This document shows, piece after piece, positions 1 through 64,000 of a DNA stretch of 64,000 nt. Both the position numbers and the translations under genes were made by a program. This DNA comes from Longibacter salinarum (GTDB lineage: Bacteria > Bacteroidota > Rhodothermia > Rhodothermales > Salinibacteraceae): positions 1 through 64,000 of the forward strand of contig NZ_PDEQ01000006.1 of assembly GCF_002554795.1 (NCBI RefSeq), read 5' to 3'. The first letter of the stretch is position 1. Each line of letters begins with the position of its first letter. The notes beneath the pieces were generated by a model. It did not search any database. It worked only from the letters and a program-made list of their open reading frames with translations, and was not told the DNA's origin.

Positions 1-737
1 GACTGCTCGGCTCGATCGAAGAGGTGCTCCAGCGTCGCGAACCGGGCATGTACGCGCCGCTTCACGACGGCCGTAAAGCGGCCATATCCGGCGCGGACGA
101 TGTGGTACGGGTTGAAGGCGTACGCCTCCATAAGTGCCTGACCCGTGGAGCCGAACGTAAACGTCGCGGACTTATCGTAGTCGGGGAAGAGAGCTTCAAT
201 TCCGGCTTGGATACGCTGGCGCACAGTAGCGAGCGTTTGCTCATCCTCGTCGTAGTAGGCGGTGAGGAGCCGGATCCGGCGGTACACCTCGGGTAGAAGT
301 CGGTCGGTTTGCGTTTTGCCCAGACGGGCAACGAGGTGCATCACCCGCGGGTCTTTATGGTCGGTTTTGCCGGTGTCGTTCGACTCGACCGCTTTGAGCT
401 TGGCGACGTGCTCGGGGCTAATCAGCGCGGTCGGGTGGCCGAGACGCCGAGCGGTGTGCAGGAGCTTGCGTTCGTACCCGCCGGTCGCCTCCGCGCAGAC
501 CCGCACGCAGTTGAGGTCGACCTCGGTGGCCAGGCGGTCCAGGCGGCGGAGCAGTGCTTCGATCCGGTCGGTCTGGTTCGGAATCGTGTCCTCGACGCGG
601 CAGACCGAGGGCCCGGCGTCGTGTTTGGTGGCGTGGTATTCGGTGTAGAGGGAGAGCGAGTGCTTCGAGACGTCGAAGCAGCAGACGAGATCCGTGGAAG
701 GGTTGACGGTGGGAGTCGCAGCTACGATCTTGAGCAT
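1..737 (-). CDS. IS110-family transposase, N-terminal part (runs off left edge)
   Basis: This frame is open from an ATG at 737-735 to the window edge, about 245 codons. The N-terminal DEDD (RuvC-like) catalytic domain of IS110-family DNA recombinases is visible: a first Asp in CFDVSKHSLSLY, a Glu in CAEATGGYER, and the acidic pair region NDTGKTDHKDPRV. IS110 enzymes move small elements without terminal inverted repeats and are guided by a structured non-coding RNA. The C-terminal Tnp_20 domain with the catalytic Ser would lie outside the window, so intactness cannot be judged. It is only distantly similar to the transposase at 2544-3578. The roughly 230 bases upstream of its start contain no gene and an imperfect hairpin around 832-865. 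Confidence 0.85.
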   Translation of the reverse strand, partial: MLKIVAATPTVNPSTDLVCCFDVSKHSLSLYTEYHATKHDAGPSVCRVEDTIPNQTDRIEALLRRLDRLATEVDLNCVRVCAEATGGYERKLLHTARRLGHPTALISPEHVAKLKAVESNDTGKTDHKDPRVMHLVARLGKTQTDRLLPEVYRRIRLLTAYYDEDEQTLATVRQRIQAGIEALFPDYDKSATFTFGSTGQALMEAYAFNPYHIVRAGYGRFTAVVKRRVHARFATLEHLFDRAEQ

Positions 738-974
738 GAGGGGCTAAGCGAAGCTGGTGAATGGAATCAAGGACCGGAGTCAGTGTAGCGAGGCCCCTTC
801 TTCTTTGCTGTGCTTCGCATAAAGGTACGGTGCACCGGACGATGTCGGTGTGCCGTTTCAGACGATTTGTAGCGGTTGGCTGCACGTCCCGCGACCTTTA
901 GCCCTCGCTGCTCACCTATCCATCGCCGGTGAACGCCCATCCGTTATGCGTTTGGAAAACGTCTACCCAGTGCA

Positions 975-1631
975 ATGAGAGACGGAAAGTGTGTCTATTG
1001 CGGCGAAGAGAAAAAGGTTACTGATGAGCACGTCGTACCGCAGGGGCTGTACGTGGACTCGCACAACGCAGTGATTCCATGCTGCGAATCCTGTAATAAC
1101 CAGAAATCGGATGACGACGAGTACTTTAGGCTCGTTTTTGCAGTTCTAGAAGCCAGCAAAGACCACCCAGTGGCACAGAAGATGAAAGAGAAAGTCATCC
1201 GCTCTCTTCAAAAACCTGAAAAGGCGGGTTTCGCAAATATGATTCAGCGTTCAGCAAGTAATGTCGAGACCCAGAACCAAGAGGGTGAAACCATACAGAG
1301 AACGGGTTTGAAAGTAGAAGTCAATCGCGTAAACCGTATTTTTGAGTTCATCACTCAAGGGCTGCTGTACCTGGAGGAGAAAATGTACGTGGAAGCGAAT
1401 TTCTCGGTTGTCAGTACATTCGGACATGAAGAAGATACGGATGCGGGCAAGAAACTTATTGGCCGGATTAATAGTGATCTTGTGAATCTTCCCTGGACGC
1501 AGATTGGAGACAACGGTGTTTTTAGGTACCGGTACAAACCAGTCGAAGAGCTACCCAGATCGATTTGGGAAATGGAAATATACAATGGTGAAAGTGTAGT
1601 CACTTTTGTCAGTAAGAAGGAGGATAGTTGA
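975..1631 (+). CDS. HNH endonuclease-like protein (cassette gene)
   Basis: This is a 218-aa protein. The N-terminus shows the zinc-knuckle HNH layout: C6-x2-C9, then DEHVVPQ (H19), then CCESCNNQKS with C37/C40 and the Asn-Asn pair. HNH domains bind one metal and cut DNA; such stand-alone proteins occur in defence or mobile contexts. The rest (about residues 55-218) has no motif I recognise. The gene is followed 3 bases after its stop by an attC site (1635-1750), the usual position in an integron cassette. A GTTATGC at 943-949, 25 bases before the start, could be the 3' end of a preceding attC. Its substrate is unknown, and a non-nuclease role is possible. Confidence 0.72.
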   Translation: MRDGKCVYCGEEKKVTDEHVVPQGLYVDSHNAVIPCCESCNNQKSDDDEYFRLVFAVLEASKDHPVAQKMKEKVIRSLQKPEKAGFANMIQRSASNVETQNQEGETIQRTGLKVEVNRVNRIFEFITQGLLYLEEKMYVEANFSVVSTFGHEEDTDAGKKLIGRINSDLVNLPWTQIGDNGVFRYRYKPVEELPRSIWEMEIYNGESVVTFVSKKEDS

Positions 1632-1634
1632 AAC

Positions 1635-1750
1635 ACATAACCCAACGCTGCTGCTGACAACGGGCGTCAGCTAAATCCGTGAGGGTAGCGTCTGCAGCGC
1701 TTCTTCCGCAAGTTATCATTGCCCGTTGCAGCAGAGCTCTTTCCTTATGT
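1635..1750 (+). repeat. attC recombination site 1 of a cassette array
   Basis: The site starts with an R''-type box ACATAAC (1635-1641) and ends with the near-complementary CTTATGT (1744-1750). Internal arms GCTGCTGCTGACAACGGGC (1647-1665) and GCCCGTTGCAGCAGAGC (1721-1737) pair, leaving unpaired extra bases, as in the L''/L' arms of attC sites. Total length is 116 nt. The first base of the right box is C where a functional R' has G, so the downstream crossover point may be damaged. The site lies between the stop of the HNH gene and the start of the next gene. Confidence 0.75.
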
Positions 1751-1762
1751 GTACTTGCGCTG

Positions 1763-2410
1763 ATGGCTGACTTAGAAGAAAACTTAGAGCGGCCTCCAGA
1801 CTACGGTTCGCTGCAGTTTTCTGTGGAGGGTCAACCGGCATCTCTTCAGTCCAGTAGTAGCAGTAGGCAAGAAGTGAAAAGCAGAGTCTCCAAAAAATTG
1901 GAGGGTGTTCAGTATTTGCTATCCGATGACGTACAAGTTGAAATCCGCTGGTTCATCCACGAGCGCGATCGGTATGAAAGTGATGCTGCGCCCGATATAG
2001 ACAACATTCTGAAGCCCCTCATGGATGCCCTATGCGGTGCAGATGGACTGATCGTCGATGACTGCCAAGTTCAGGCTGTAAGTTGTTACTGGCTTGACTC
2101 GTATGATGGATCACAACGTCTTGAGTTTTCAATCGACTACAGTCCTGAATCTTGGGTTAAGAAGGGCGGTCTTTGCTTCATTCACCTTGGTGACGGACTG
2201 TGCTACCCGTTACCAGGAGGTCTAAGTGTTAGACAGTCGAAATTTATGACGCAGATGATCAAGACGATGGTTGAAATGAGGGATGAATTCGAAGAGCTCG
2301 ATGCAGATTACTATCAATCTAAGATGTTAATGCCGAGTCAGCGGGCCTTCCATCGGACGAGAGTGGCGTCAGAATTCGAAGTTTTAGAAGCTGAGGACAT
2401 CTTGAACTAA
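1763..2410 (+). CDS. RusA-like Holliday-junction resolvase family protein (cassette gene)
   Basis: This is a 215-aa protein. I chose the ATG 12 bases after the end of attC site 1; upstream in-frame codons would translate the attC itself. The central stretch APDIDNILKPLMDALCG followed by LIVDDCQV matches the RusA signature, with Asp residues of the metal site in D-x-D-N and in the later D-D. RusA proteins are small dimeric nucleases that cut four-way DNA junctions and are common in prophages. Here the family core (about residues 45-130) is followed by an extra tail of about 80 residues without recognised motifs. The gene is followed 7 bases later by attC site 2. Function by homology only. Confidence 0.65.
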   Translation: MADLEENLERPPDYGSLQFSVEGQPASLQSSSSSRQEVKSRVSKKLEGVQYLLSDDVQVEIRWFIHERDRYESDAAPDIDNILKPLMDALCGADGLIVDDCQVQAVSCYWLDSYDGSQRLEFSIDYSPESWVKKGGLCFIHLGDGLCYPLPGGLSVRQSKFMTQMIKTMVEMRDEFEELDADYYQSKMLMPSQRAFHRTRVASEFEVLEAEDILN

Positions 2411-2417
2411 ACCTTAC

Positions 2418-2530
2418 ACATAACCCCACGCTGCTGCTGACGAAGGGCGGAGCCGATTTCCGGCGCCGCAGAATCCACTGCCGGGCTCGTACCTTTTCTT
2501 GCCCTTCGCAGCAGAGCTCTCCCGTTAGAT
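2418..2530 (+). repeat. attC recombination site 2 of a cassette array
   Basis: Left box ACATAAC (2418-2424) and right box GTTAGAT (2524-2530), the latter a perfect GTTRRRY core site. Arms GCTGCTGCTGACGAAGGGC (2430-2448) and GCCCTTCGCAGCAGAGC (2501-2517) pair, again with extra unpaired bases. The arms are nearly the same as those of sites 1 and 3, as in sedentary chromosomal integrons, where attC sites of one array resemble each other. Length is 113 nt. The IS110 element begins within 13 bases of its right end. Confidence 0.82.
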
Positions 2531-2543
2531 ACTCTCTTCAAAG

Positions 2544-3578
2544 TCAAGCGGCGGTGAGCACTTTTTCGGGCACTCTGTAGAACTTCTCGCCTTGGAAGTC
2601 TTGGCCGTGTTTGAGCATGCCGTAGATCGCGTGCAGGAGTTTGCGCATCACCGCCACGACGGCCACGATTGGCTTCTTCCCACGCCCGGTGAGTTTCTCG
2701 TAGAATGCGGCCACGTTGGGCTCCCAGCGGATGCTTACCAGGGCCGGCATGTAGAGCGCGTGCCGGAGCCGAGCGTTGCCCACCTTTGAGATTCGTTCCG
2801 GTCGGTCAACCGAGCTGCCAGACTGATGTCGGCGCGGGTCAAGCCCGGCGTAGGCGACCCACTCGCGCACGGTCATATCGTCGGGTAGGAGCGCAATCTC
2901 GGCCAGGATCAACAGCGCGCTCTTCTCGGCGATGCCTCGGATTGAGGTCAGGTGATCCAGAGCGACCTTCAGGCGCTCGGACTTGGCAGTGACCTTCATG
3001 GCCTGCCGTGTCAGTTCGGCAATGCGGCGGTCAAGATGACGAACGTTGACCTCAATATCGTTGACGACGACGGCAGAACTTGTCCGGCTCTGCTGGGCGG
3101 CGTGCAGGCGGTTCTTCTCGCGCGTCCGTTCGACGGTAAGTGCCTGGATCCGCCGCGCAATCGCTCGGAGGTCCAGCACGGCGCGTTCGGGAGGCGTCCA
3201 TGCCCTAAATGGCATGCGGCGCGCGAATGCGCAGATGACGACCGCATCCGAGCGATCCGTTTTCGAGCGCTCTACGAGGGCATCGCGGAAGCGGCTCATG
3301 GCGCGCGGGTTGGCAACCATGACATCGGCGCTTCCAGACGCGTGGAGGGCGAGAGCGAGATCGAGGCTGTACAGGCCACTGGCTTCCAGACAAACCCGCA
3401 CGGCATCGTCGGTGCCTAGCCAATGGATCAGCTGTTGGTGTCCGTCGGCGTCGTTGGCAAAGCGCCGCGTCTTGCGCTTGTCATCGGTCCGGTCGAGACA
3501 GACGTCGAGATGGTCCTTGCTGACATCGATCCCAGCGAAGGTGGACGGAGGATAGCGCCGTGGGTGGTGGTTGTGCAT
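2544..3578 (-). CDS. IS110-family transposase (complete)
   Basis: This is a 344-aa protein of normal family length. The N-terminal DEDD domain shows GIDVSKDHLDV (first Asp), VCLEASGLYS (Glu) and SKTDRSDAVV (two Asp). The C-terminal Tnp_20 domain shows TSIRGIAEKSALLILAEI and YAGLDPRRHQSGSSV, containing the Ser-Gly that supplies the catalytic serine. It looks intact. The stop lies 13 bases from the end of attC site 2, so almost no non-coding DNA is left on the 3' side. The non-coding end of the element must therefore be upstream of the start (from 3579 rightward), as in IS110-group elements whose bridge RNA precedes the transposase. Confidence 0.92.
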   Translation of the reverse strand: MHNHHPRRYPPSTFAGIDVSKDHLDVCLDRTDDKRKTRRFANDADGHQQLIHWLGTDDAVRVCLEASGLYSLDLALALHASGSADVMVANPRAMSRFRDALVERSKTDRSDAVVICAFARRMPFRAWTPPERAVLDLRAIARRIQALTVERTREKNRLHAAQQSRTSSAVVVNDIEVNVRHLDRRIAELTRQAMKVTAKSERLKVALDHLTSIRGIAEKSALLILAEIALLPDDMTVREWVAYAGLDPRRHQSGSSVDRPERISKVGNARLRHALYMPALVSIRWEPNVAAFYEKLTGRGKKPIVAVVAVMRKLLHAIYGMLKHGQDFQGEKFYRVPEKVLTAA

Positions 3579-3800
3579 GAGCGCGTCTCATCGTATGCTT
3601 TAAGAGAAGTGAATGGCCGGTCGGTCCCGCCCTGCGCTTCCTGCCTGCGGATATTGCACGATGCAGGATCTGACGAAGGCGCTGCTACGCCGTCAGGCCT
3701 TGGATACTCCTCAGCATGGGCAGGAGCCGGGGCGGGGGGACGGGTCTAACGGTCAAGCTCAACGGGCCTGCCGAAGGCAAGCCGCTCTGGCTTCATGCCG
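3579..3800 (-). other. Structured non-coding end of the IS110 element, candidate bridge-RNA region
   Basis: No gene is visible. A long imperfect stem pairs about 3627-3649 with 3719-3741 (GC-rich, tolerating mismatches). Inside it a compact hairpin has outer arms CTGAC/GTCAG and inner arms GGCG/CGCC around the loop CTGCTA (about 3671-3700). IS110 elements are known to transcribe a structured guide RNA from such a flank. Its position, just 5' of the transposase, fits that. The right end of the element is not defined, so the boundary is a guess. Confidence 0.3.
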
Positions 3801-3963
3801 CTGCAGTCTGCCCGGCCCCGGCAAGCTACGAACTCAGCTTACACCTGCCCACTTCCGAGATACAATGCCGAGGTTGGTTGACCGAAAAGGAGTCGATAGA
3901 TACGTTTCCTGTCAAGCACTATCGGCTTTCCTCTCAGTACCTATTTTTAGACTCTTCCATCCA

Positions 3964-4176
3964 ATGGATAAGCGATTTGGCGGTGCATTTCTTGGCGTTA
4001 TCATTTATAAAGCGATCGCTTGGTCAATTGCCCCAGCGGCCTCCGAGTGGTCGACCGAGGCTCTTGAGGCTGTCGCGATTGCCCTTTTTGTGACAGCGGT
4101 CCTAGAGCTGCAGGACTGGTGGCTCAGTAAGAGCGACACTACGACCGATGAGACCAAGGTCAGTGAGGCAACTTAA
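3964..4176 (+). CDS. Small membrane protein (probable cassette gene)
   Basis: This is a 70-aa protein of unknown function. Two hydrophobic stretches, GGAFLGVIIYKAIAWSIA (residues 6-23) and LEAVAIALFVTAVLEL (about 31-46), suggest a helical hairpin, followed by a polar Thr/Asp/Glu-rich tail. I chose this ATG because the 117 in-frame codons upstream have no protein-like pattern and run into the flank of the IS element. The sequence TTTAGAC, complementary to GTCTAAC at 3744-3750, lies 11 bases before the start; these could be the outer boxes of a badly decayed attC. An attC-like site follows at 4272. Orientation and size fit a cassette gene. Confidence 0.45.
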   Translation: MDKRFGGAFLGVIIYKAIAWSIAPAASEWSTEALEAVAIALFVTAVLELQDWWLSKSDTTTDETKVSEAT

Positions 4177-4271
4177 CCCAAGGTGAGACCGGTGACGGGG
4201 CGCAGATGACCCGACAAGACAAATTTAGATAGAAGGCTTCCTCGGATACCGAAAAGCTGGGACACAGCACG

Positions 4272-4463
4272 GCATACCCCCACACTGTAGTTGCCGAAGG
4301 GCCAGTGCCAGTTTCGAGCGAGATGCATGGGGCGATTTCGCTGTCGCTACATGGAAGTGTAGGGCCGAGCCAATGCGTGCTTAGGGAACGGCGTTGGTTG
4401 ATCGACATGCCGGAATACCGAGCTTTTTCCTTACCCTTTGCGAACGAATCGATTCCGTTACAC
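4272..4463 (+). repeat. Probable degenerate attC site
   Basis: The left part, 4272-4302, matches the first 31 bases of attC site 2 at 24 positions, including the terminal GCCGAAGGGC arm. The right part (CCCTTTGCGAACG at 4434-4446, then GTTACAC at 4457-4463) has the spacing of an L'-R' end and precedes the next gene by 23 bases. The left box is GCATACC instead of GCATAAC, and the outer boxes no longer pair. At 192 nt it is longer than the other sites. It is probably a real but decayed site. Confidence 0.45.
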
Positions 4464-4486
4464 AGCAAGACACTAAATCTTCTGAC

Positions 4487-5626
4487 ATGGCTTCGTGCTG
4501 GACGTACTGCAGCGCCGTTGCTCTTCTTCTATCGGTTTTTCCGACTTTTTCCTTCGCGCAAACGCCACAAGAGTCGATCGACGTGCCCATAGCCCCCCGC
4601 GTGGACACGACCGACGCTGACGTCAAGCAGGTGTACCAGCTCTGGCGGTCGTACCTGAGGTCCCGGCCGGACTCGGTCTACGACAATCCGCACTGGTCAG
4701 AGGAGGAGAAAGAACGCTACGCGGATTTCGACATCTCCAGGCGCTGGACATACGGCTACGAAGTCGGCGGAAGGAGCATTCACGAGACATACGGACTCAA
4801 ACCGCGCGTCTTGAGCATCGAGCGGCAGGACAGCCTCTACGCCATCCGTACGCTCTACGCGCCGGATGACCTCGCTCATGCGCAAGAAATCTATTCGCTC
4901 CAACGCGTCTATGCCGGAAAGGAAAACGGCGCATGGAAGCTGTACAACGCCCTGTCGGTTCGTACGAAAGACTGGAACCGGGCGCGCGCGGGCGCTCTTC
5001 GCTACATCTATCCGCCCGGTCACACCCTCAACGAAAAAGCGGCGGAGCGGTCCGCTGCCTTCGTAGATTCGTTGGAGCAGGCATACGATCTTCCCGAGAC
5101 CGAGCCGATCACCTACTACGTAGCGCGCAGCTACGACGAGATGGCCAGGATCAGCGGTCTCGACTACGCCTGGGACGGCAATGACGGGCGCGCCTACCTG
5201 GTCAACCGTCAAATCTTTGTCGGCACGGCTTCGGCGTCGTACCCGCACGAGCTGGTCCATATGGTATTTGCGGACTACGACCTTCACCCGCTCATTAGCG
5301 AAGGACTCGCTACGTACCTCGGAGGGATCGGAGATCAGTCTTTTCACGAACTGGTCGCAGACGTCGATCAACGCGTCCAGCAGAATGATCTTACGCTCGA
5401 GAGGATGATCAGCGGCCGAGGCGTGCGAGCGAGGACGCGCTACGTAGGTGGAGCCGTGCTCGTCAAAGCGGCCGACGAAGATGGAAACGAGACGCTAACG
5501 ACGTTTCTATCGCTTGCGAACTCGAAATCGGGAATCTTTGAAGCGATGGAGCAGGTGCTGGGCGTAGAACGCGAAGAAGCATCCGGGTTTTGGCAACAGA
5601 AACTGCGTGAGTACAGCCGCCAATAA
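4487..5626 (+). CDS. Secreted gluzincin-type zinc metallopeptidase (cassette gene)
   Basis: This is a 379-aa protein. The start was placed at the ATG that opens a clean signal peptide (SAVALLLSVFPTFSFAQ, cleavage near residue 25). The zinc site is HELVH at residues 254-258, with a third ligand Glu272 in SEGLATYLGG, the spacing of the peptidase MA/gluzincin clan. It should act in the periplasm or outside the cell; the substrate is unknown. The N-terminal half (residues 26-200) holds an NTF2-like or simple beta pattern I cannot assign. It sits between two attC-like sites, with the next attC 8 bases after the stop. A secreted peptidase is an unusual cassette cargo. Confidence 0.7.
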   Translation: MASCWTYCSAVALLLSVFPTFSFAQTPQESIDVPIAPRVDTTDADVKQVYQLWRSYLRSRPDSVYDNPHWSEEEKERYADFDISRRWTYGYEVGGRSIHETYGLKPRVLSIERQDSLYAIRTLYAPDDLAHAQEIYSLQRVYAGKENGAWKLYNALSVRTKDWNRARAGALRYIYPPGHTLNEKAAERSAAFVDSLEQAYDLPETEPITYYVARSYDEMARISGLDYAWDGNDGRAYLVNRQIFVGTASASYPHELVHMVFADYDLHPLISEGLATYLGGIGDQSFHELVADVDQRVQQNDLTLERMISGRGVRARTRYVGGAVLVKAADEDGNETLTTFLSLANSKSGIFEAMEQVLGVEREEASGFWQQKLREYSRQ

Positions 5627-5634
5627 AGGTTGCA

Positions 5635-5749
5635 GCATAACCCCGCTCTTCTGTTGGCGAAGGGCTGCGGCCAAAATTCAGCCGGTCGCGTCTCCTACGC
5701 CACATTCGTGCTTGGCGGTGCCCTTCGCAGCAGCCCACTATCGTTGTAT
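5635..5749 (+). repeat. attC recombination site 3 of a cassette array
   Basis: Left box GCATAAC (5635-5641); right box GTTGTAT (5743-5749). Arms at 5645-5665 (ending GGCGAAGGGC) and 5720-5736 (GCCCTTCGCAGCAGCCC) pair with a small bulge. The GCCCTTCGCAGCAG arm is the same as in attC site 2, over 3 kb away. Length is 115 nt, between a stop codon and the next start. Confidence 0.75.
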
Positions 5750-5770
5750 AGCCGAACGAGCGAAAGCATT

Positions 5771-6355
5771 GTGAGTCCGTTCGAGTATCTGCTTCCGCTG
5801 ACATCTGTCCTTGTCGGACTTGCCATAGCTGATTTAGCAACAAGTCTGCACCGGCTCCTTGAGGCACGGCGTCGTGTCCAGTGGGACTGGCTTCCTCTCC
5901 TGGCCGCGCTCCTAGCCCTTCTTGCTGTCCTCGATCTCTGGTGGGGTTTCTACGGCTACACGGGTCGTAGCGAGTGGGAGTTTGCTCAATTCCTCCCGAT
6001 ATTCGTTCAACTGGTCATTCTTTTTCTGCTCTGCGCTTCCGCTCTGCCGGACGAGGTTCCATCCGACGACGGACTGGATCTGCATGTGTTCTACCAGTCG
6101 AACGGTTCGTATTTTTGGTTTCTATATGCTGCGTATATATTTTCTATCCTCGCTCAAGACGCATTCACGTACGCCGCGTCTGGCTTGCCGGAGCAGATGA
6201 GCACCGTGTCGGTGCTTGCGGGTTCTATCCCCAACCTTTTACTGATTGCGCTATTCGTGGGGCTTGCCCTCGTGCATCGGCGCTGGCTCCACATGGTAGC
6301 CGTACCCGGTTTGATCGTGTACCAGATTGTTGAATGGTCCGGACGAGTTCTTTGA
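5771..6355 (+). CDS. Integral membrane protein (cassette gene)
   Basis: This is a 194-aa protein starting with GTG, 21 bases after attC site 3. The upstream in-frame codons would translate the attC. About five or six membrane helices are visible: the N-terminal LLPLTSVLVGLAIADLATSL, then WLPLLAALLALLAVLDLWWGFY, FLPIFVQLVILFLLCASAL, WFLYAAYIFSILAQ and IPNLLLIALFVGLAL. Related hypothetical proteins beginning with a similar S-P-F-E-Y-L-L-P pattern occur in many genomes; no function is known. It is the last cassette-like gene I can defend; no attC was seen after it, only a hairpin at 6380-6411. Confidence 0.65.
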   Translation: MSPFEYLLPLTSVLVGLAIADLATSLHRLLEARRRVQWDWLPLLAALLALLAVLDLWWGFYGYTGRSEWEFAQFLPIFVQLVILFLLCASALPDEVPSDDGLDLHVFYQSNGSYFWFLYAAYIFSILAQDAFTYAASGLPEQMSTVSVLAGSIPNLLLIALFVGLALVHRRWLHMVAVPGLIVYQIVEWSGRVL

Positions 6356-6379
6356 AACGGTCGGACGCTGCAGTTCAAT

Positions 6380-6411
6380 GCCGGGGAAATGGAAAGAAAT
6401 GTCTTCCCGGC
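6380..6411 (+). terminator. Hairpin after the last cassette gene
   Basis: GCCGGGGAA (6380-6388) pairs with TTCCCGGC (6404-6411) around a 15-nt loop, 24 bases after the stop. There is no T-run, so termination is uncertain; it may mark the end of the cassette array. Confidence 0.35.
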
Positions 6412-6487
6412 CACGTCGGCTGAGGTTTTTCGCTATGCCAGTGAAATCTTCTTTTTAACCATCCTCGCTCAATTCCGATGAGAAGCT

Positions 6488-12018: not shown

Positions 12019-13653
12019 ATGAACATCTGGACCCGGCGATTTCTCTATGCCATAGGTACCGTGTCGGCGGTATTTCTTCTCTATGCGATGGTGTATCAGT
12101 GGTGCATGCGAACCTTCGAAGGGGAGCCCGTCACCTACATCCAGGCGCTGCAAGTGGTGGTGGAGGCGATCACCACGGCCGGCTTCGGCGGCCATGCTCC
12201 GTGGCAGAGCGGGGTGCTGAACGTGATGGTTCTCGCTATGAACCTGACGGGTGTCCTTTTCGTCTTCCTTGCCGTTCCGGTGTTCCTTGTGCCGCTCTTT
12301 CGCGAGGTCATACGGTCGCATCCCCCGTCGTCGACGGACATCACCGGCCACATCATTATCTGCACGCACACCGCTCGTGGAGATGCGTTTATATCGGAAC
12401 TCATCGCTCGAAACCAGGGCTATGTCATTATCGAGCCCGATCGGGACGTGGCCCGAAGGCTCTACGACGACGGCTATCAGGTGATGGTTGGTGACCCGGA
12501 GTCGGTCGATGTGCTGAAGAACGCGAACATCGCGGACGCGATGGCCGTGGTCGCCGATGCCGAAGACGATGTTAATGCGAGTATTGCCCTGTCCGTCCGC
12601 GAGATCGATTCCGATATCCGCGTTGTCACGTTGGTCGAAGATCCCGCTCTTGTGACGTATCACCGGTTGGCGGGGGCTGACGACGTGTTGTCGCCGCGGC
12701 AGCTCGTGGGCGAAAGTCTCGCACGTCAGGTTCCGACGGTGATGCGGGCGTCAATCGCTGAAGGTGTGCCGCTCGGCGGTGAGATCAAGCTCGTGGAGTT
12801 GAAAGTTGAGCCCGACGGAGAGCTCATCGGAAAGACCATAGGAGATCTACTGAATCGCGGGGAATATGCAACGGATCTCATCGGTGCCTGGAAGGATGGA
12901 GAGTTTACGAGCCCTCTGCCCGACAACTTTGTGCTGGATTCCGGTGTACGGCTGTTGGTTGCCGGCCCGGCATCACGCATCAAGGCTCTTCAGGAAGAAG
13001 CATCCGCGACGCTCGCATACGCTCCGCCACGGTCGGTCGTCATTGCAGGATATGGGCGAGCAGGAGAGGCTGCGGCGTCCGTGTTGGCGGAGACGAGTGC
13101 GTCTGTTACGGTACTCGACCGGGAGCCGAGTCGTCCGGTCGATGTCGTGGGCGATGTGCGCGATCCGGATGTGCTGGTCGAGGCCGGCGTCAAAGATGCC
13201 ACGGCCGCGATCATAACCGTCGACGATGATACAACGGCGATTCTCGCCACGCTCGTCATGCGAGATCTCAATCCGGGCCTCTACATCATCGTCCGGGCAA
13301 ATGCTGAGTCCGATGAGCGTAAGCTGTATCGGGCGGGTGCGAACTACGTGCAGTCTCTGGCCACGGTGAGCGGCCGGATGCTGGCGTCTACGATCTTACA
13401 GGATGAAGAAGTACTGTCCTTCGAGCAGCAGATTGAAATTGTCAAACTCCCGGCCGGTCGCCTCGCGGGAATGACCCTTGCGGATGCAGACGTACGGACA
13501 GAAACAGGCGTCGTCGTACTTGCTATTTACCGCGACGGAGAGACGCACCTCGATATGGACCCAAACACCTTCGAAATCGCGAAGGAGGATGCTCTCATCA
13601 TTGCAGGCATGACGGAGAACATTCGTCACTTCGAAACCCGATATCTTGGGTAG
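12019..13653 (+). CDS. Potassium channel with two RCK (TrkA-N/TrkA-C) modules
   Basis: This is a 544-aa protein. The N-terminus has a 2-TM pore unit: helix 1 at residues 8-28, a pore loop with TTAGFGG (53-58) where potassium channels usually have TVGYG, and helix 2 at about 67-90. Two RCK modules follow in tandem. The first Rossmann domain begins HIIICTHTARGD (about residue 112) and has a TrkA-C domain near 252-330. The second begins SVVIAGYGRAGEAAA (about 336), with TrkA-C near 470-544. It should conduct K+ under nucleotide or ion control. The altered filter raises the question of selectivity. Two RCK domains per chain means four chains give a full gating ring. Confidence 0.85.
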   Translation: MNIWTRRFLYAIGTVSAVFLLYAMVYQWCMRTFEGEPVTYIQALQVVVEAITTAGFGGHAPWQSGVLNVMVLAMNLTGVLFVFLAVPVFLVPLFREVIRSHPPSSTDITGHIIICTHTARGDAFISELIARNQGYVIIEPDRDVARRLYDDGYQVMVGDPESVDVLKNANIADAMAVVADAEDDVNASIALSVREIDSDIRVVTLVEDPALVTYHRLAGADDVLSPRQLVGESLARQVPTVMRASIAEGVPLGGEIKLVELKVEPDGELIGKTIGDLLNRGEYATDLIGAWKDGEFTSPLPDNFVLDSGVRLLVAGPASRIKALQEEASATLAYAPPRSVVIAGYGRAGEAAASVLAETSASVTVLDREPSRPVDVVGDVRDPDVLVEAGVKDATAAIITVDDDTTAILATLVMRDLNPGLYIIVRANAESDERKLYRAGANYVQSLATVSGRMLASTILQDEEVLSFEQQIEIVKLPAGRLAGMTLADADVRTETGVVVLAIYRDGETHLDMDPNTFEIAKEDALIIAGMTENIRHFETRYLG

Positions 13654-57900: not shown

Positions 57901-58032
57901 TCCGTTCCGCCGGCACCCGCGAGCCACGATCGGGGTGACGTGACGTGCTGGCCGATTCGCTTTATTCACCGCCCCCGTCTTCGTACGTTGGCGTCGCCCC
58001 AGACCTCGTTTTTCCTCTTTTAGTGTCCGCTT

Positions 58033-59196
58033 ATGTGGGACCGCATCATTGATCAGGAGCGCGTCGTGGAAACGATTCGACGGACGCTCAAACAGAACCG
58101 TGTCGCTCACGCCTACCTGTTCCACGGGCCCGACGGCGTCGGCAAGCGAGCGGTTGCGCTTGCGATGGCCCGCGCGCTCGAATGCAGCCGCAATGATGCG
58201 GTCCCGTGCGAAGAGTGCGCGGACTGCCGGAAAACGCGGCGCATGGTGCATCCGGATGTCCACGTGCTGTTTCCGTACCCGAAGGGCACGGACGAGGACG
58301 ATGTTGCAGAGCGAATCCAGCGGCTCGGTGAGGATCCGTACGCCGCGGTCGATTACGTCCGTCGCCCGTCGCTCAACGACCCGACGGAGACGTCCAACAA
58401 ACAGGTGATGTACCACATCAGCCGGGTGCATGAGGATCTGCTTCGGCCGATGTCGTACCGCCCATCGGAAGGGGCGTCCAAGGTCGCGATCATCACGGAT
58501 GTGGAGCACATGAACGAGTCGGCCGCCAACGGCTTCCTGAAGCTGCTGGAAGAGCCGCCGCCGCGGACGATCTTTTTGCTGACGACGAGTCGGCCGGAGC
58601 AGCTGCTTCCGACGATCGTTTCGCGCTGCCAGCGACTCCGCTTCGATCCGCTTCTGGTCGAGTCGATCGAATCAGCGCTCCGGGAACGGGAGGGCATGGA
58701 CGAGCCGCGGGCTGCGATGCTCGCCCGCATGGCCGATGGGTCGTACACGCGTGCTCTCGAGCTGGCCGAGAGCGACGACCTGATGACAAGTCGACAGCTC
58801 GTGATCGACTTCTTTCGGTCGTCGTACGCACGGAACGTCAATCAACTGAGCGATCAGGTTAACGAGATCTCGTCTCAGGGCCGGGAGCGAGCCAAATCGG
58901 TTCTGCAACTGATGCTACGGTGGATCCGGGATCTGATGCTCTATCGCGAACTCAACGACGAAGCTCCCCTCGTTAATGTGGACCAGCAAGAGGTCATCGA
59001 AAACTTTGTCCGTCGCGTCCCGGATGCCAACCTCGAATCGATGATCGACATGGTTGAACAGGCCATTCACCTCGCCGAGCGAAACGTTCGGTTGTCGCTT
59101 GTCCTAACGACGCTCGCGCACCGGCTGGGCGATGCGATGCGTGGTCAGGGGAGTGATCGTCTGTACGTGCCCATGCCGGAGGCGGAGCTTTCCTAG
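58033..59196 (+). CDS. holB: DNA polymerase III delta' subunit
   Basis: This is a 387-aa protein. IIDQERVVETIRRTLKQNRVAHAYLFHGPDGVGKRAVALAMARALEC with a P-loop, then the zinc knuckle CEECADCRK, then HPDVHVLFPYPKGTDEDDV, the SNKQVMYHISRVHEDL block and the sensor-1 region FLKLLEEPPPRTIFLLTTSRPEQLLPTIVSRCQRLRF. This is the clamp-loader AAA+ fold of the gamma/tau-delta' type. It works in the complex that loads the sliding clamp at the replication fork. The long insert before residue 130 is seen in Bacteroidota homologues. Confidence 0.88.
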   Translation: MWDRIIDQERVVETIRRTLKQNRVAHAYLFHGPDGVGKRAVALAMARALECSRNDAVPCEECADCRKTRRMVHPDVHVLFPYPKGTDEDDVAERIQRLGEDPYAAVDYVRRPSLNDPTETSNKQVMYHISRVHEDLLRPMSYRPSEGASKVAIITDVEHMNESAANGFLKLLEEPPPRTIFLLTTSRPEQLLPTIVSRCQRLRFDPLLVESIESALREREGMDEPRAAMLARMADGSYTRALELAESDDLMTSRQLVIDFFRSSYARNVNQLSDQVNEISSQGRERAKSVLQLMLRWIRDLMLYRELNDEAPLVNVDQQEVIENFVRRVPDANLESMIDMVEQAIHLAERNVRLSLVLTTLAHRLGDAMRGQGSDRLYVPMPEAELS

Positions 59197-59596
59197 CGAA
59201 TACGCAACTCATCCCGGCAGGGCTCACGGGGCCGAGAGTAGCAATATTGAAGCATCGACAGAAATAACTTCACAATTCGTTCTTCGATGCCTTATACTTG
59301 GCGATTGCATACGGTTCGTCTAGAAGCCCCTTGACTCCGAGCCGGATTTTCGGCCTGGATTCTTTGCTGAATGACGCTTCACGCATGAGACTGCCTCACA
59401 CAGTTGGTTCTGACCTTCATGCGTGACGATGGGAGACAGAACCGTGTCGATCCGACGTCGCTTCATTGCTGTCTCAAATCGTGAGATCAGGCGACATTAA
59501 CGAGGTCGGCATATTCCTTGTAGATTAGTTACGACGCTGCCCGATCCGGCTGGCCCGGATCCCCCAATCACCCGTTTCACAACTCTCGAGCGCTTC
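59197..59596. other. Intergenic region with one inverted repeat
   Basis: About 400 bases without a gene. TCACGCATGA (59379-59388) and TCATGCGTGA (59417-59426) form a 10-bp inverted repeat with a 28-base loop. There is no T-run, so it could be an operator or an RNA hairpin rather than a terminator. Confidence 0.45.
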
Positions 59597-59953
59597 ATGT
59601 CCTATCCCTCTGATGCCGAGCCGATCCTGTCGACGCGGTGTAAGTTACCCGGACGAAGCCTGTGGTTCAGCCGTGCACATCTCCATGAGGATCATATCGA
59701 ACTTTCGGGTTGGAATTGGCGGGGTCGCTTTTCCCGATCGATCGAACTCGATAACATCGATCGCTTCCAGTGGTGGGCCGTCCTCAACGACGTCAACTTC
59801 CTGCTTCACCTGAAGGATGGGGCCGCTGTGCCACTTCAGTTGCTCCGCAGTGCAGGCGTATGGAGTTGCAAATTGCACGAGCTTTTGGGGCAAAGTATTC
59901 TGGCACAAGACGCGATCCCACGCGTTGCACCTCGTCGCGACATCGCTGCCTGA
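59597..59953 (+). CDS. Hypothetical protein, PH-like beta pattern
   Basis: This is a 118-aa soluble protein. LPGRSLWFSRAHLHEDHIELSGWNWRGRFSRSIELDNIDRFQWWAVLNDVNFLLHLKDG alternates short strands in the manner of bacterial PH-like domains that end in a helix (SAGVWSCKLHELLGQSI). No family can be named. It precedes the TPR protein gene by 63 bases on the same strand. Confidence 0.5.
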   Translation: MSYPSDAEPILSTRCKLPGRSLWFSRAHLHEDHIELSGWNWRGRFSRSIELDNIDRFQWWAVLNDVNFLLHLKDGAAVPLQLLRSAGVWSCKLHELLGQSILAQDAIPRVAPRRDIAA

Positions 59954-60016
59954 TCCGTTCGGTTCTCATCGAGAGTGGGCAGCGAGCATTCCACGCTCAC
60001 CGACTCGCTTTCTCCG

Positions 60017-60841
60017 ATGATGTCTAACCGACTGCCGACCCGTTTCGGGTTGTCTCTCACGCTCGCAACTCTTGTGCTTCTCTTCGTGTCGCTCGTCCCG
60101 ATGTCAGCGGCGGCACAGACGCCGGATCCAGACGAGATCGACGCGTCACCGGAACTGAAGCCGAACCTAGTTGAAGCGGACAGCCTTCGTCGTGCTGGAG
60201 CATTCCGCGAGGCGTTCGGTCTACTTACGTCCTTAAAGCAAGAACATCCGTCCAATGCCGAAGTCCTGTATCGGCTTGCACTGACCCGCGTGGACATGGG
60301 GGAAATCGCGGACTCCGGTCAGAGGCGGCAGTCGATGTACAAGTCGGCGCTCGAAGACGCGAAAGCAGCCGTCGAAGCAGATACGGCGCTCGCGTTTGCA
60401 CACCTCTCTAGAGCTATCGCCGAGGGCCGCGTTGCCCTCACCGCAGGGACCAAAGAGAAGATTCAGCGCTCCCGTGCCGTCAAGCGTCATGCCGACCAGG
60501 CGATTGAGCTCGACCCTGATATGGCTTCCGCGTACCACGTCCGGGCTCGCTGGAACCGGGAAGTGGCGGACCTTGGCTTCTTCTCTCGTGCCATTGTCAA
60601 AACGGTCTATGGCGGACTCCCCGAAGCCTCGTTCGAGCAGTCCGTGCGTGACTTCAAGACGGCGATTCAGAAGGAAGACAAGATCGTTCACCATATCGAA
60701 CTTGCCCGAACGTACATGAAGATGGACCGCGAGGATGCGGCCAAAGAGGAGCTTCAGACGGTCCTCGCCATGGAGAATGAAGATCCCGACGACCCGCAGC
60801 ACAAGAAGGAAGCGGAAGAGCTTCTGAATGATCTGAGTTAA
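60017..60841 (+). CDS. Exported TPR protein
   Basis: This is a 274-aa protein. A double ATG starts it; the second follows at once. Signal peptide: RFGLSLTLATLVLLFVSLVPMSAAAQ. TPR-like helix pairs are seen in VEADSLRRAGAFREAFGLLTSLKQEHPSNAEVLYRLALTRVDMG, then KSALEDAKAAVEADTALAFAHLSRAIAEG, then VKRHADQAIELDPDMASAYHVRARWNRE and IELARTYMKMDREDAAKEELQTVL. It matches the general plan of small periplasmic TPR proteins of Bacteroidota. Partner unknown. Confidence 0.78.
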   Translation: MMSNRLPTRFGLSLTLATLVLLFVSLVPMSAAAQTPDPDEIDASPELKPNLVEADSLRRAGAFREAFGLLTSLKQEHPSNAEVLYRLALTRVDMGEIADSGQRRQSMYKSALEDAKAAVEADTALAFAHLSRAIAEGRVALTAGTKEKIQRSRAVKRHADQAIELDPDMASAYHVRARWNREVADLGFFSRAIVKTVYGGLPEASFEQSVRDFKTAIQKEDKIVHHIELARTYMKMDREDAAKEELQTVLAMENEDPDDPQHKKEAEELLNDLS

Positions 60842-60998
60842 TGTCGCGCGTCATATCGCCCGGTCGTTTCGTCCGGCGTCTCCGCACCACGTTCACGCAT
60901 GTCGCGTGTGCGTTACGGTCGCGAGACGCCGGAACGTTTTACGGGGTCAACGATGACAAACGTCACTCCTTTTCTCCGCTCTCAAACCCCAATTGTAC

Positions 60999-61865
60999 AT
61001 GCCGTACTCCGCCGAGATCAGTCGACAACAGCCGACGGCGTTTTTATTTCTGTTGGATCAGTCGGCGTCGATGCAGGACACGTTCGGTGGGGCGAAAGCG
61101 AAAGGCGATGCTGCACCAAGCAAGGCACGCGTACTGGCCGATACGGTGAACCGTCTGCTCCAGAATCTCGTCCTTCGGTGCGCGAAGGAAGAAGGAGTTC
61201 GTGACTACTTCGACGTCGGCATCATTGGCTACGGAGAGCGGGTGCAACATTTGATTACCCCGGCGGATGAGCACAATACCGGGACGGGTCTGATTCCGAT
61301 CAGTCACCTCGCTGAGCGGCCGCGTCGCATGGAGGAGCGAGTCAAAACCGTTACGGACAGCAACGGGGGCGAGAAAGAGCGCCGCGTGAAGTCGCCGGTC
61401 TGGTTCGATCCGCATGCGAAGAACGGCACCCCGATGTGCCAGGCGCTCGACCTTGCCGCGCAGTCGGTGCGGTCGTGGATCGACGACCATTCGTCCAGCT
61501 TCCCGCCTGTCGTGATAAACGTGACGGACGGCGAGGCGACCGACGGAGATCCGCTTCGATATGCGCAGCAGCTCCGTTCGTTTGCCACGGACGACGGAGA
61601 GGTTTTACTCTTCAACGTGCATTTGTCGGAGTCCGAGGAGCCGGCGTTGATGCTGCCGTCGGATCGTAGCGAGCTGCCGCATGACGATGAATACGCGGAG
61701 ACCCTCTTTCAGATGTCGAGCACGCTACCGTTTTCGATGCGCGCAGCCGCCGAACAGGAGGGCTTGCACGTCGACCTCGACACACGCGGCTTTATCTTCA
61801 ACGCCGATCCAGTTTCGCTCGTAACGTTCCTCGAAATCGGTACGCGACCAAGCACGCTCCGCTAA
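60999..61865 (+). CDS. von Willebrand factor A domain protein (TerY-like)
   Basis: This is a 288-aa protein. The ATG at 60999 is used; a TTG 6 bases earlier is possible. AFLFLLDQSASMQDTF gives the MIDAS motif D-x-S-x-S, NGTPMCQALDLA the Thr and VVINVTDGEATDGDPLRYA the second Asp. There is no signal peptide, so it acts in the cytoplasm. It is followed by a PP2C phosphatase and a protein kinase on the same strand, the gene set known as the TerY-P phosphorylation triad. No C-terminal zinc ribbon is seen. Confidence 0.8.
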   Translation: MPYSAEISRQQPTAFLFLLDQSASMQDTFGGAKAKGDAAPSKARVLADTVNRLLQNLVLRCAKEEGVRDYFDVGIIGYGERVQHLITPADEHNTGTGLIPISHLAERPRRMEERVKTVTDSNGGEKERRVKSPVWFDPHAKNGTPMCQALDLAAQSVRSWIDDHSSSFPPVVINVTDGEATDGDPLRYAQQLRSFATDDGEVLLFNVHLSESEEPALMLPSDRSELPHDDEYAETLFQMSSTLPFSMRAAAEQEGLHVDLDTRGFIFNADPVSLVTFLEIGTRPSTLR

Positions 61866-61898
61866 CATCGAGCCCCGGGAGCTTTCGATCCACGAACG

Positions 61899-62657
61899 AT
61901 GTGCATGGCAGCCGACTCCAATTCGATCGAACAAGAAGATGTGCGGGGTGACCCCGGGTCGCCTGTGGCAGATTCTGTTGCGGTCACGCTTCCGAAAGCC
62001 GGTCATGACGAGGACGAAAACGAAGACGCCTTCGTTGTCCGGGATGAGACTTTTCCGGTTCGGGCTGCCGTCGCGGATGGTGCAACCGAAGCCGTGTACT
62101 CAGGCGTCTGGGCAGACCTGCTTACGCGGCAGATCGCAGCACTGGACGACTGGTCGGGTACGGGCTGGGACGACGCCGTTCATGCCGCTCGGTCCGAGTG
62201 GCAGACGGTCGTCGACGCGGAACCGGTTGACGTTCCATGGTATGTCGCAGAGAAGCGGGAGCAGGGAGCCTTCGCGACGGTGCTCGGCCTGGTGATTCGG
62301 GGCGACGGAACGTTCGAGGCGCGATGGGTCGGGGACTGCGTCCTCATTCAGCAGTCGAAGGGGAGCAAGCAATCCTGGCCCGTTGACGATCCAGAGGCGT
62401 TTACGCATCGGCCCGCACTACTTTCTAGTCGTTCCGAGGCGGGGACGATTACCGCGCAGACGACCGAGGGGACGTGGGATCAGGAAGATGTCTTTCTTCT
62501 CGCGACGGACGCCGTCGCGGCCTGGCTCCTTCGCGAGACACCCGAGTTAGCCCACGACGCGGATGCTCTCCGCGAGCAGCTCCGCACGGCCCGGCAGGAA
62601 GGACATCTACGCAATGATGACTGCACCATCATCCGCATCACAATGGCGGCCGGTTGA
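61899..62657 (+). CDS. PP2C-family protein phosphatase
   Basis: This is a 252-aa protein (or 250 if the second ATG is used). NEDAFVVRDETFPVRAAVADGATEAVYSG carries the metal-binding Asp pattern of PP2C enzymes; FATVLGLVIRGDGTFEARWVGDCVLI and WDQEDVFLLATDAVAAWLL follow, ending with LRNDDCTIIRI, the last metal Asp. It should remove phosphate from Ser/Thr set by the kinase encoded next, or from the VWA protein. 33 bases after the VWA gene, so one operon. Confidence 0.83.
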   Translation: MCMAADSNSIEQEDVRGDPGSPVADSVAVTLPKAGHDEDENEDAFVVRDETFPVRAAVADGATEAVYSGVWADLLTRQIAALDDWSGTGWDDAVHAARSEWQTVVDAEPVDVPWYVAEKREQGAFATVLGLVIRGDGTFEARWVGDCVLIQQSKGSKQSWPVDDPEAFTHRPALLSSRSEAGTITAQTTEGTWDQEDVFLLATDAVAAWLLRETPELAHDADALREQLRTARQEGHLRNDDCTIIRITMAAG

Positions 62658-62707
62658 CGCCACTGCTTTTCTTTGAGCTCGCCTATTTTTTCGCCCCAGT
62701 TCCGTTC

Positions 62708-64000
62708 ATGAGCTACCCCACGCCGAGCGATTATCAGGAAGCCGTGCAGGACCCGGAATCTGCGTTTCACGATCCGGAACTGCAGACAGCTTCGCCCCGC
62801 GAGAACGTGCTCGGTCTACCCCAGCCGATCACAGGCGCTTTTGCGGCGGTCTTCCCGATGACGACAGATATCGGCGTGCGATATGCTGCCAAGTGTTTTC
62901 TGTCAGAGGTGCCGAATCAACAACGCCGATATGCTGCGGTGTCTGAGCATCTTTCATCGGTTGACCTGCCGTGGACGGTTGCATTCGACTACCAGCGTCG
63001 TGGCATTGACGTGAACGGCAGCACGTACCCGGTTCTCAAGATGGAATGGGCCGAGGGGGCGGGTCTGAATCGGTTCGTCGACCGGCACATCAATGAGCCG
63101 GATGTGCTCTTGAGCCTGGCTGATCGCTGGCTCGATGTCTCTCGGGATCTGGAAAAGGCAGAAATAGCACACGGCGATTTGCAGCACGGAAACATCCGCG
63201 TGGTTGACGAGGACGGCGACGTGGTCATCCGCCTCGTCGATTACGACACGATGTATGTACCGGCGCTCTCCGGCCGGATAAGCGCGGAGGTCGGGCACCG
63301 AAATTATCAGCACCCGGATCGAACTGAGCAGGACTTTGGGCCGGGCATCGACCGCTTTTCTGCACTCGTCATCTACGCGGGATTGCAGGCGTGTGCCGCT
63401 CGTCCCGAGCTCTGGCAAGCGTACGACACAGGGGAGAACCTCCTTTTCCGCGACGGCGATTTCTATGATCCCGATTCGTCGCCTCTGCTGAACGAATTGC
63501 GCGGTATAGAACATATGGCTCCGCTCGTCGAGTCGCTACGAACGGCATGTTACGTGGAGCCGGAGGATGTCCCGAGTCTTGATGACATCGTTCACGGTGA
63601 GGCCTCGTTTTCGGGAGTCACCGCCCGGTCGCGGTCCCGTGACCGGGCGGCCGATCCAGTGGCGCAGCGTGACACCGTCGAACGCCTCTGGGCCCCGGGT
63701 GTCGTCCTGGCTCTGGTTCTGGCCGTCGCGCTCGGCATTGGTTTGAGCATGACGATGGGGGCTGTGATGACTGCCTCAATCGTAGTCGTGTCTGGAGCGG
63801 CCGCCTGGCTTCGATATCGCCGACACCCTGTTGTGCGCCGGAATCGTCGGCTCACAAGGGAGGCGGAGCGCATCAGCCGCCTGATCCAAAACGTACGTCG
63901 TCAGATCGCTTCGTTACAGCTTCGCCGGGAGGAGGTGTTAGACTCGGTGGATGACCGGCGCGCCGAGCGCCTGAACGAGCTCCGAGAGGAAGTGATATAC
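62708..64000 (+). CDS. Protein-kinase-like protein with membrane helices (runs off right edge)
   Basis: Open frame from the ATG at 62708 to the window end, at least 431 codons. Kinase core: VRYAAKCF (probable ATP Lys in YAAKCF), then EIAHGDLQHGNIRVV (catalytic loop HGDL-x-x-x-N) and VVIRLVDYDTMYV (Asp of DFG as DYD). After a linker with many Arg/Asp come two membrane helices (LWAPGVVLALVLAVALGIGL and MTMGAVMTASIVVVSGAAAWL), then a basic coiled coil (LTREAERISRLIQNVRRQIASLQLRREEVL). It is the third member of the VWA-PP2C-kinase triad; the membrane anchor suggests a signalling complex at the inner membrane. Confidence 0.75.
   Translation, partial: MSYPTPSDYQEAVQDPESAFHDPELQTASPRENVLGLPQPITGAFAAVFPMTTDIGVRYAAKCFLSEVPNQQRRYAAVSEHLSSVDLPWTVAFDYQRRGIDVNGSTYPVLKMEWAEGAGLNRFVDRHINEPDVLLSLADRWLDVSRDLEKAEIAHGDLQHGNIRVVDEDGDVVIRLVDYDTMYVPALSGRISAEVGHRNYQHPDRTEQDFGPGIDRFSALVIYAGLQACAARPELWQAYDTGENLLFRDGDFYDPDSSPLLNELRGIEHMAPLVESLRTACYVEPEDVPSLDDIVHGEASFSGVTARSRSRDRAADPVAQRDTVERLWAPGVVLALVLAVALGIGLSMTMGAVMTASIVVVSGAAAWLRYRRHPVVRRNRRLTREAERISRLIQNVRRQIASLQLRREEVLDSVDDRRAERLNELREEVIY

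What the first reader, a model, noticed from the sequence alone, without database searches (positions are those of the whole stretch)
943..6355. Integron-type cassette array without an integrase in a Bacteroidota-like chromosome
Three strong attC-like sites (1635-1750, 2418-2530, 5635-5749) and one decayed site (4272-4463) alternate with single plus-strand genes. All have complementary outer boxes, long arms with extra unpaired bases and a length of 113-116 nt, and the arms GCTGCTGCTGAC-x-A-x-GGGC / GCCC-T/G-TCG/TGCAGCAG are shared. A cluster of attC sites lacking a nearby integrase is a known arrangement; sharing of arms points to a resident chromosomal integron. Further weak traces: GTTATGC at 943-949 and GTCTAAC/TTTAGAC at 3744 and 3946.
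Basis: partly seen in the sequence, partly recalled or inferred. Interest (0 to 1): 0.78.

Follow-up and report, generated by a model that had tools for sequence, protein, structure and literature searches.

The report
Chromosomal integron split by assembly break
This is a real but ordinary gene-capture array (a chromosomal integron); it seemed to lack its integrase only because the assembly breaks inside a transposon lying in one of its recombination sites, and an intact integrase gene sits at the end of the contig that most likely joins here.

Summary
The attC-like sites are real. A covariance model built from seven sites of this genome scores window 1635-1750, 2418-2530 and 5635-5749 at 96-105 bits. 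The 'decayed' site 4272-4463 matches a long (about 190 nt) attC class of relatives (E=2.9e-9). GTTATGC at 943-949 is the R' end of a fifth attC whose 5' half was cut off by an IS110/IS1111-like insertion at the contig start. 'Without an integrase' is wrong at genome level. An intact 323-aa IntI, with attI and three cassettes, lies 2.9 kb from the end of contig C2, which stops inside the same IS type, inserted in an attC. In three near-complete relatives the genes before the C2 intI are followed 8-10 kb downstream, in the same order and orientation, by orthologues of window 58-64 kb. So C2 and the window contig most likely abut, and the array is one complete sedentary integron split by an assembly break. 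Equivalent attC sites occur in 24 of 27 family genomes and IntI in 44 of 114 genomes of the order. A complete integron is already published for Salinibacter ruber. I file it as a new member of a known kind. A conserved, catalytically dead IntI paralogue elsewhere in the genome is more unusual.

The parts
1..828 (-). Part of IS110/IS1111-family element #1 (transposase N-terminus on - strand 3-737; rest lies beyond the contig end); inserted in an attC
   Evidence: NF033542 IS110 transposase E=2.7e-13; a 94% identical copy of window 126-830 at C8; subterminal repeat TTATGC[G/C]AAGCACA at both ends with unequal extensions
829..949 (+). 3' part of an attC split by IS #1 (arm GTGCACCGG-A-CGATG ... 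CATCGCCGGTG, R' GTTATGC 943-949)
   Evidence: R1 29.1 bits, R2 43.1 bits; resembles intact C2 attC L017:16586-16700; 5' half at C2 end L017:17740-17757
975..1631 (+). Cassette gene, HNH-like protein 218 aa
   Evidence: PF14279 HNH_5 E=1.7e-4, below the gathering score
1635..1750 (+). attC site (R'' ACATAAC, R' CTTATGT), 116 nt
   Evidence: R1 104.8 bits, R2 90.3 bits; fold z=-3.0
1763..2410 (+). Cassette gene, RusA-like Holliday junction resolvase 215 aa
   Evidence: PF05866 E=5.9e-10, over the cut-off
2418..2530 (+). attC site (R' GTTAGAT), 113 nt
   Evidence: R1 96.2 bits; fold z=-2.3
2544..3578 (-). Single-copy IS110-family transposase (element #2) between attC 2418-2530 and the next ORF
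   Evidence: PF01548 E=8e-30, NF033542 over its cut-off; single copy
3964..4176 (+). Small cassette ORF, 70 aa
   Evidence: no Pfam match
4272..4463 (+). Long-class attC (192 nt) with weakened R'' (GCATACC) and L'; R' GTTACAC
   Evidence: nhmmer with 14 long-class attC, window excluded: E=2.9e-9; R2 20.7 bits, E=0.011; no R1 hit
4487..5626 (+). Cassette gene, 379 aa secreted-looking protein
   Evidence: no Pfam or NCBIfam match
5635..5749 (+). attC site (R' GTTGTAT), 115 nt
   Evidence: R1 95.9 bits, R2 68.2 bits; fold alone not significant (z=-0.6)
5771..6355 (+). Last cassette gene, membrane protein 194 aa
   Evidence: no family match
6361..6438 (+). Possible 3' remnant of a long-class attC that would end the array
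   Evidence: nhmmer profile positions 114-189, E=0.29 only
58024..64000 (+). Conserved chromosomal block that in relatives lies 8-10 kb downstream of the GlgX gene next to which intI sits on contig C2
   Evidence: colinear in G062, G065, G066

Best explanation
The region is the distal part of one complete sedentary chromosomal integron. The intact integrase gene and attI lie at the end of contig C2. Reading from attI: three cassettes on C2, whose third attC was split by an IS110/IS1111-like element, then at least four cassette genes in the window (HNH-like, RusA-like, 379 aa, 194 aa), with a second IS110 element between the RusA-like cassette and the long-class attC. By the known integron mechanism IntI would recombine the folded bottom strand of attC with attI to insert and shuffle cassettes. 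The apparent absence of the integrase comes from the assembly breaking inside the repeated IS. Shown: the sites, their conserved structure, the intact intI with its catalytic residues, and the IS sitting in an attC. Inferred: the direct C2-window join (about 0.88) and present-day recombination activity.
For: attC covariation; 20 genome-wide hits and 24 of 27 family genomes. IntI at C2:756029-756973 over the TIGR02249 cut-off, aligned end to end with VchIntIA 2a3v at E=1.4e-78 with R, K, HxxR, H and Y conserved. attI core GTTATGC 308 nt upstream of the intI start, followed by two intact attC-bounded cassettes and an attC cut by the IS end. The window starts with the other end of such an IS and the 3' part of an attC. 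C2 block ... GlgX, then the window 58-65 kb block, in the same order and orientation in G062, G065 and G066; flanks of the competing contigs do not match there. The same genus shows GlgX then intI at the same place.
Against: Two contigs end in the left IS end (C2, C5) and two start with the right one (C6, C8), so the IS alone does not fix the pairing. The middle of the IS is not in the assembly. About 51 kb without an orthologous block lie between the array and the conserved block. R'/R'' of neighbouring cassettes are not always complementary, and site 4272-4463 and the end of the array look degraded.
Confidence: 0.87

Rival explanations
1. A true CALIN: the window array belongs to a cassette cluster elsewhere (for example continuing from contig C5), and the C2 integron is a separate locus that acts on it in trans.
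For: C5 also ends in the same IS left end inside an attC R'' half, and the C5|C6 empty site folds about as well as C2|C6 (-29.5 against -28.0 kcal/mol). Other attC clusters without an adjacent intI exist on C1, C5, C7, C8 and C9.
Against: Order and orientation in three near-complete relatives join C2 to the window contig; C5 and C8 flank proteins do not match that neighbourhood.
Confidence: 0.11
2. A dispersed palindromic repeat family (REP/MITE-like) that only imitates attC.
For: Sites occur at several places in the genome and across the family.
Against: Sites alternate with single same-strand genes, have R'/R'' boxes and extra-helical bases, arm sequences change by compensation while the fold is kept, and the same site type stands next to attI and an intact intI on C2, and next to intI in G055 and G065.
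Confidence: 0.02

Closest known systems
Sedentary chromosomal integron (complete integron sensu IntegronFinder; Salinibacter ruber M1 reported in PMC9024848)
   Same: intI with all catalytic residues, attI, attC-bounded same-strand cassettes, fixed chromosomal place in the genus
   Different: Assembly split by an IS in an attC; a second, longer attC class in the family; additional attC clusters on other contigs
CALIN (cluster of attC sites lacking an integron-integrase; PMC9024848)
   Same: Taken alone the window fits: several clustered attC and no intI among them
   Different: An intact intI lies on the contig that most likely abuts the window; that paper names this as a draft-assembly artefact
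IS1111-attC group insertion sequences (ISKpn4, ISPst6; PMC11187229, citing Tetu and Holmes 2008 and Post and Hall 2009)
   Same: IS110-superfamily transposase, subterminal inverted repeats with unequal extensions, longer non-coding end downstream of the transposase gene, insertion at one position inside attC
   Different: Only the two ends and the transposase N-terminus are assembled; the guide RNA could not be located

Membership tests
Complete sedentary chromosomal integron | Tyrosine integrase of the IntI type with catalytic R, K, HxxR, H, Y and the IntI-specific insertion | tested here: met
   TIGR02249 399.7 bits; full-length alignment with 2a3v
Complete sedentary chromosomal integron | attI next to intI | tested here: met
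   Core GTTATGC 308 nt upstream of the intI start; similar core in the same genus; located by inspection, not by assay
Complete sedentary chromosomal integron | At least two attC sites with R''/R' boxes, L arms and extra-helical bases | tested here: met
Complete sedentary chromosomal integron | Integrase physically linked to this array | tested here: inconclusive
   Linked by split attC and conserved gene order, but across a contig break
Complete sedentary chromosomal integron | Recombination of these attC by this IntI | not testable with these tools
   needs an assay
CALIN | No integron-integrase adjacent to the attC cluster | tested here: inconclusive
   none next to the array on its own contig; one at the end of the probable neighbouring contig
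IS1111-attC insertion sequences (element #1) | Subterminal inverted repeats with unequal (7/3 nt) extensions and insertion in attC | tested here: met
   TTATGCGAAGCACA / TTATGCCAAGCACA with longer outer extension on the left, junctions inside attC at C2, C5, C6, C8; exact ends uncertain
IS1111-attC insertion sequences (element #1) | seekRNA in the downstream non-coding region matching attC | not testable with these tools
   middle of the element not assembled

The most novel reading that the evidence does not exclude
This clade has domesticated an integron integrase: a catalytically dead IntI paralogue (C3:143263-144261, not in the window) that has lost the catalytic Arg and the whole HxxR-H-Y part is kept at a conserved place in three genera, under strong purifying selection within the genus. 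It could act as a DNA-binding regulator, for example of IntI, of att sites or of the TCCGGATA repeats beside attI.
Probability: 0.2. Interest if true: 0.6.

Novelty: new member of a known kind. Interest (0 to 1): 0.3.

Why it matters
It corrects a likely 'integrase-less' call into a complete integron and shows that attC-targeting insertion sequences can make draft assemblies break exactly inside integrons, which inflates CALIN counts. It adds that attC of one structural type occur in nearly every genome of this family, in a short (about 115 nt) and a long (about 190 nt) class, in a group for which I found only one published complete integron.

Tried and rejected
Rfam gave only a tRNA in the window, so attC models were built here. 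Minimum-energy folding alone was not decisive for site 3. The IntI scan of genome contigs found only a 44% relative in a Pseudomonadales MAG. Boxes at 3744 and 3946 found no model support and were dropped. Pairing of contigs by attC half-site complementarity was tried and does not discriminate. A first synteny try with the gene at window 12019-13653 failed, because it is far from GlgX in relatives; the 58-65 kb block gave the answer. AlphaFold of the dead IntI paralogue was poor (pLDDT 52.6) and was not searched further. Tetu and Holmes 2008 is not held and is cited only through PMC11187229.

Full report
Observation. The window is the first 64 kb of contig C6 of a 4.4-Mb genome in 22 contigs. 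The three strong sites are at the stated coordinates. Each has an R''-like box (ACATAAC or GCATAAC), arms in which GCT, six bases and five bases pair with the opposite arm (the outer GCT pairs fail in site 3), and two unpaired bases at fixed places. Two more such sites stand on contig C2 and two on C1. In the seven, 91.3% of cells pair and eleven pairs change on both sides, against 77.1% and 5.7 in shuffles; sliding the partner by one to three columns drops pairing to 30-43%. Two of the seven (C1) were found by a scan that asked for the arms, so they lean towards the structure; the other five were picked by eye. A covariance model from these seven finds 20 sites in the genome. With 74 family sites the covariation stands, with the caveat that this alignment was fitted to the model.

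The weak site and traces. The family, however, holds a second attC class of about 177-192 nt. A sequence profile of 14 of these, window excluded, finds 4273-4438 at E=2.9e-9, against 0.05 for the best hit in five locally shuffled windows. It is a long-class attC with a weak R'' (GCATACC) and an L' arm that pairs poorly. GTTATGC at 943-949 is the R' end of a further attC, 829-949, that lacks its 5' end. The boxes at 3744 and 3946 are not supported.

The missing 5' end. Window 1-828 is one end of an IS110-family element (transposase N-terminus on the minus strand 3-737). Contig C2 ends with R'' TGTATAAC and GGCGCT followed by the other end of such an element. The two ends share the subterminal repeat TTATGC[G/C]AAGCACA with unequal outer extensions, and the insertion lies inside the attC L'' arm. 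This fits the IS1111-type elements known to target attC, which use a guide RNA from the non-coding region (PMC11187229). C5 also ends in this element, and C8 starts with a partial copy of it, so the element explains the assembly breaks but does not by itself say which ends belong together.

The integrase. Contig C2 carries, 2.9 kb from its end, an intact 323-aa IntI (C2:756029-756973, minus strand). It aligns end to end with the solved Vibrio cholerae integron integrase 2a3v (E=1.4e-78), with the catalytic residues in place. An attI core GTTATGC lies 308 nt upstream of its start, then two intact cassettes with attC and a third whose attC is split by the IS. Five copies of TCCGGATA (four direct, one inverted) lie within 125 bp before the attI core, against 0.01 in shuffles. 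The same genus carries GlgX then intI at the same place (G054).

Joining the contigs. In relatives G062, G065 and G066 the genes before the integron on C2, up to GlgX, are followed 8-10 kb downstream by orthologues of C6 58024-65144 (five genes, same order and orientation; 51-79% identity). Flanks of C8, C5, C7 and C9 have no orthologue in that neighbourhood beyond weak matches of 35-41% far away. So C2's end and the window's start most likely abut. In that case the integron is complete: intI, attI and at least seven cassettes. Not excluded: a further contig between the two.

How it works. By the established integron mechanism (from general knowledge, not tested here) IntI binds the folded bottom strand of attC through the extra-helical bases and recombines it with attI, so that cassettes enter at attI and are carried down the array. 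Orientation fits: all sites and cassette genes read away from attI. Cassette products include an HNH-like protein, a RusA-like resolvase and proteins of no known family. Activity is inferred. The distal part, with IS #2 at 2544-3578, the weakened long site and only a trace of a final attC (6361-6438, E=0.29), looks like ageing cassettes.

Known or new. Model R1 finds sites in 24 of 27 family genomes, all 14 of the near-complete ones, and IntI is found in 44 of 114 genomes of the order. A complete integron is published for Salinibacter ruber M1, and the same paper warns that split integrons in drafts look like CALINs (PMC9024848). Genomes here are unnamed; that the order is Rhodothermales is my inference, not tested. 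I therefore file the finding as a new member of a known kind.

In passing. Four short IntI-like genes lie elsewhere in the genome. One (C3, 333 aa) keeps the N-terminal domain and the IntI-specific stretch but has lost the first catalytic Arg and everything with HxxR, H and Y. Orthologues in G054, G052 (one stop codon inside), G055 and G056 share the loss, and the neighbouring dehydrogenase gene stays with it. Against G054, dN is 0.08 with dS about 2 (near saturation), while intI itself shows dN 0.40. This suggests a domesticated DNA-binding protein; its function is unknown.

Noticed in passing
G000:C3:143263-144261 (L010:1402-2403); orthologues L097, L098, L099, L100: Catalytically dead IntI paralogue: catalytic Arg replaced and HxxR-H-Y part absent, yet conserved at a syntenic place (next to an SDR gene) in three genera, with dN 0.08 against dS about 2 within the genus.
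   Followed up: partly
G000:C3:233136 (238 aa), C4:394472 (244 aa), C4:40676 (169 aa): Further short IntI-like ORFs without a complete catalytic domain.
   Followed up: partly
L017:15175-15297 (contig C2, before attI): Five TCCGGATA copies (four direct, one inverted) within 125 bp upstream of the attI core; possible IntI-binding repeats or an operator.
   Followed up: partly
G000:C1:148022-148142, C5:392359-392495, C1:583404-583470: Short stretches matching only the non-coding end of the attC-inserting IS, following attC R'' halves: possible non-autonomous derivatives carrying the guide-RNA end.
   Followed up: partly
loci L121, L122, L126, L128, L129, L130, L135, L139, L140, L146, L087: A second attC class of about 177-192 nt in this family alongside the 113-117 nt class.
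   Followed up: partly
window 2531-3740: Single-copy IS110-type element whose transposase ends 14 nt after the R' box of attC 2418-2530, with the longer non-coding part upstream of the transposase.
   Followed up: no
window 9000-58000: About 50 kb between the array and the conserved 58-65 kb block has no counterpart between GlgX and that block in G062, G065 or G066, so the integron lies at the edge of a larger variable region; a tyrosine recombinase gene lies at 38255-39367.
   Followed up: no
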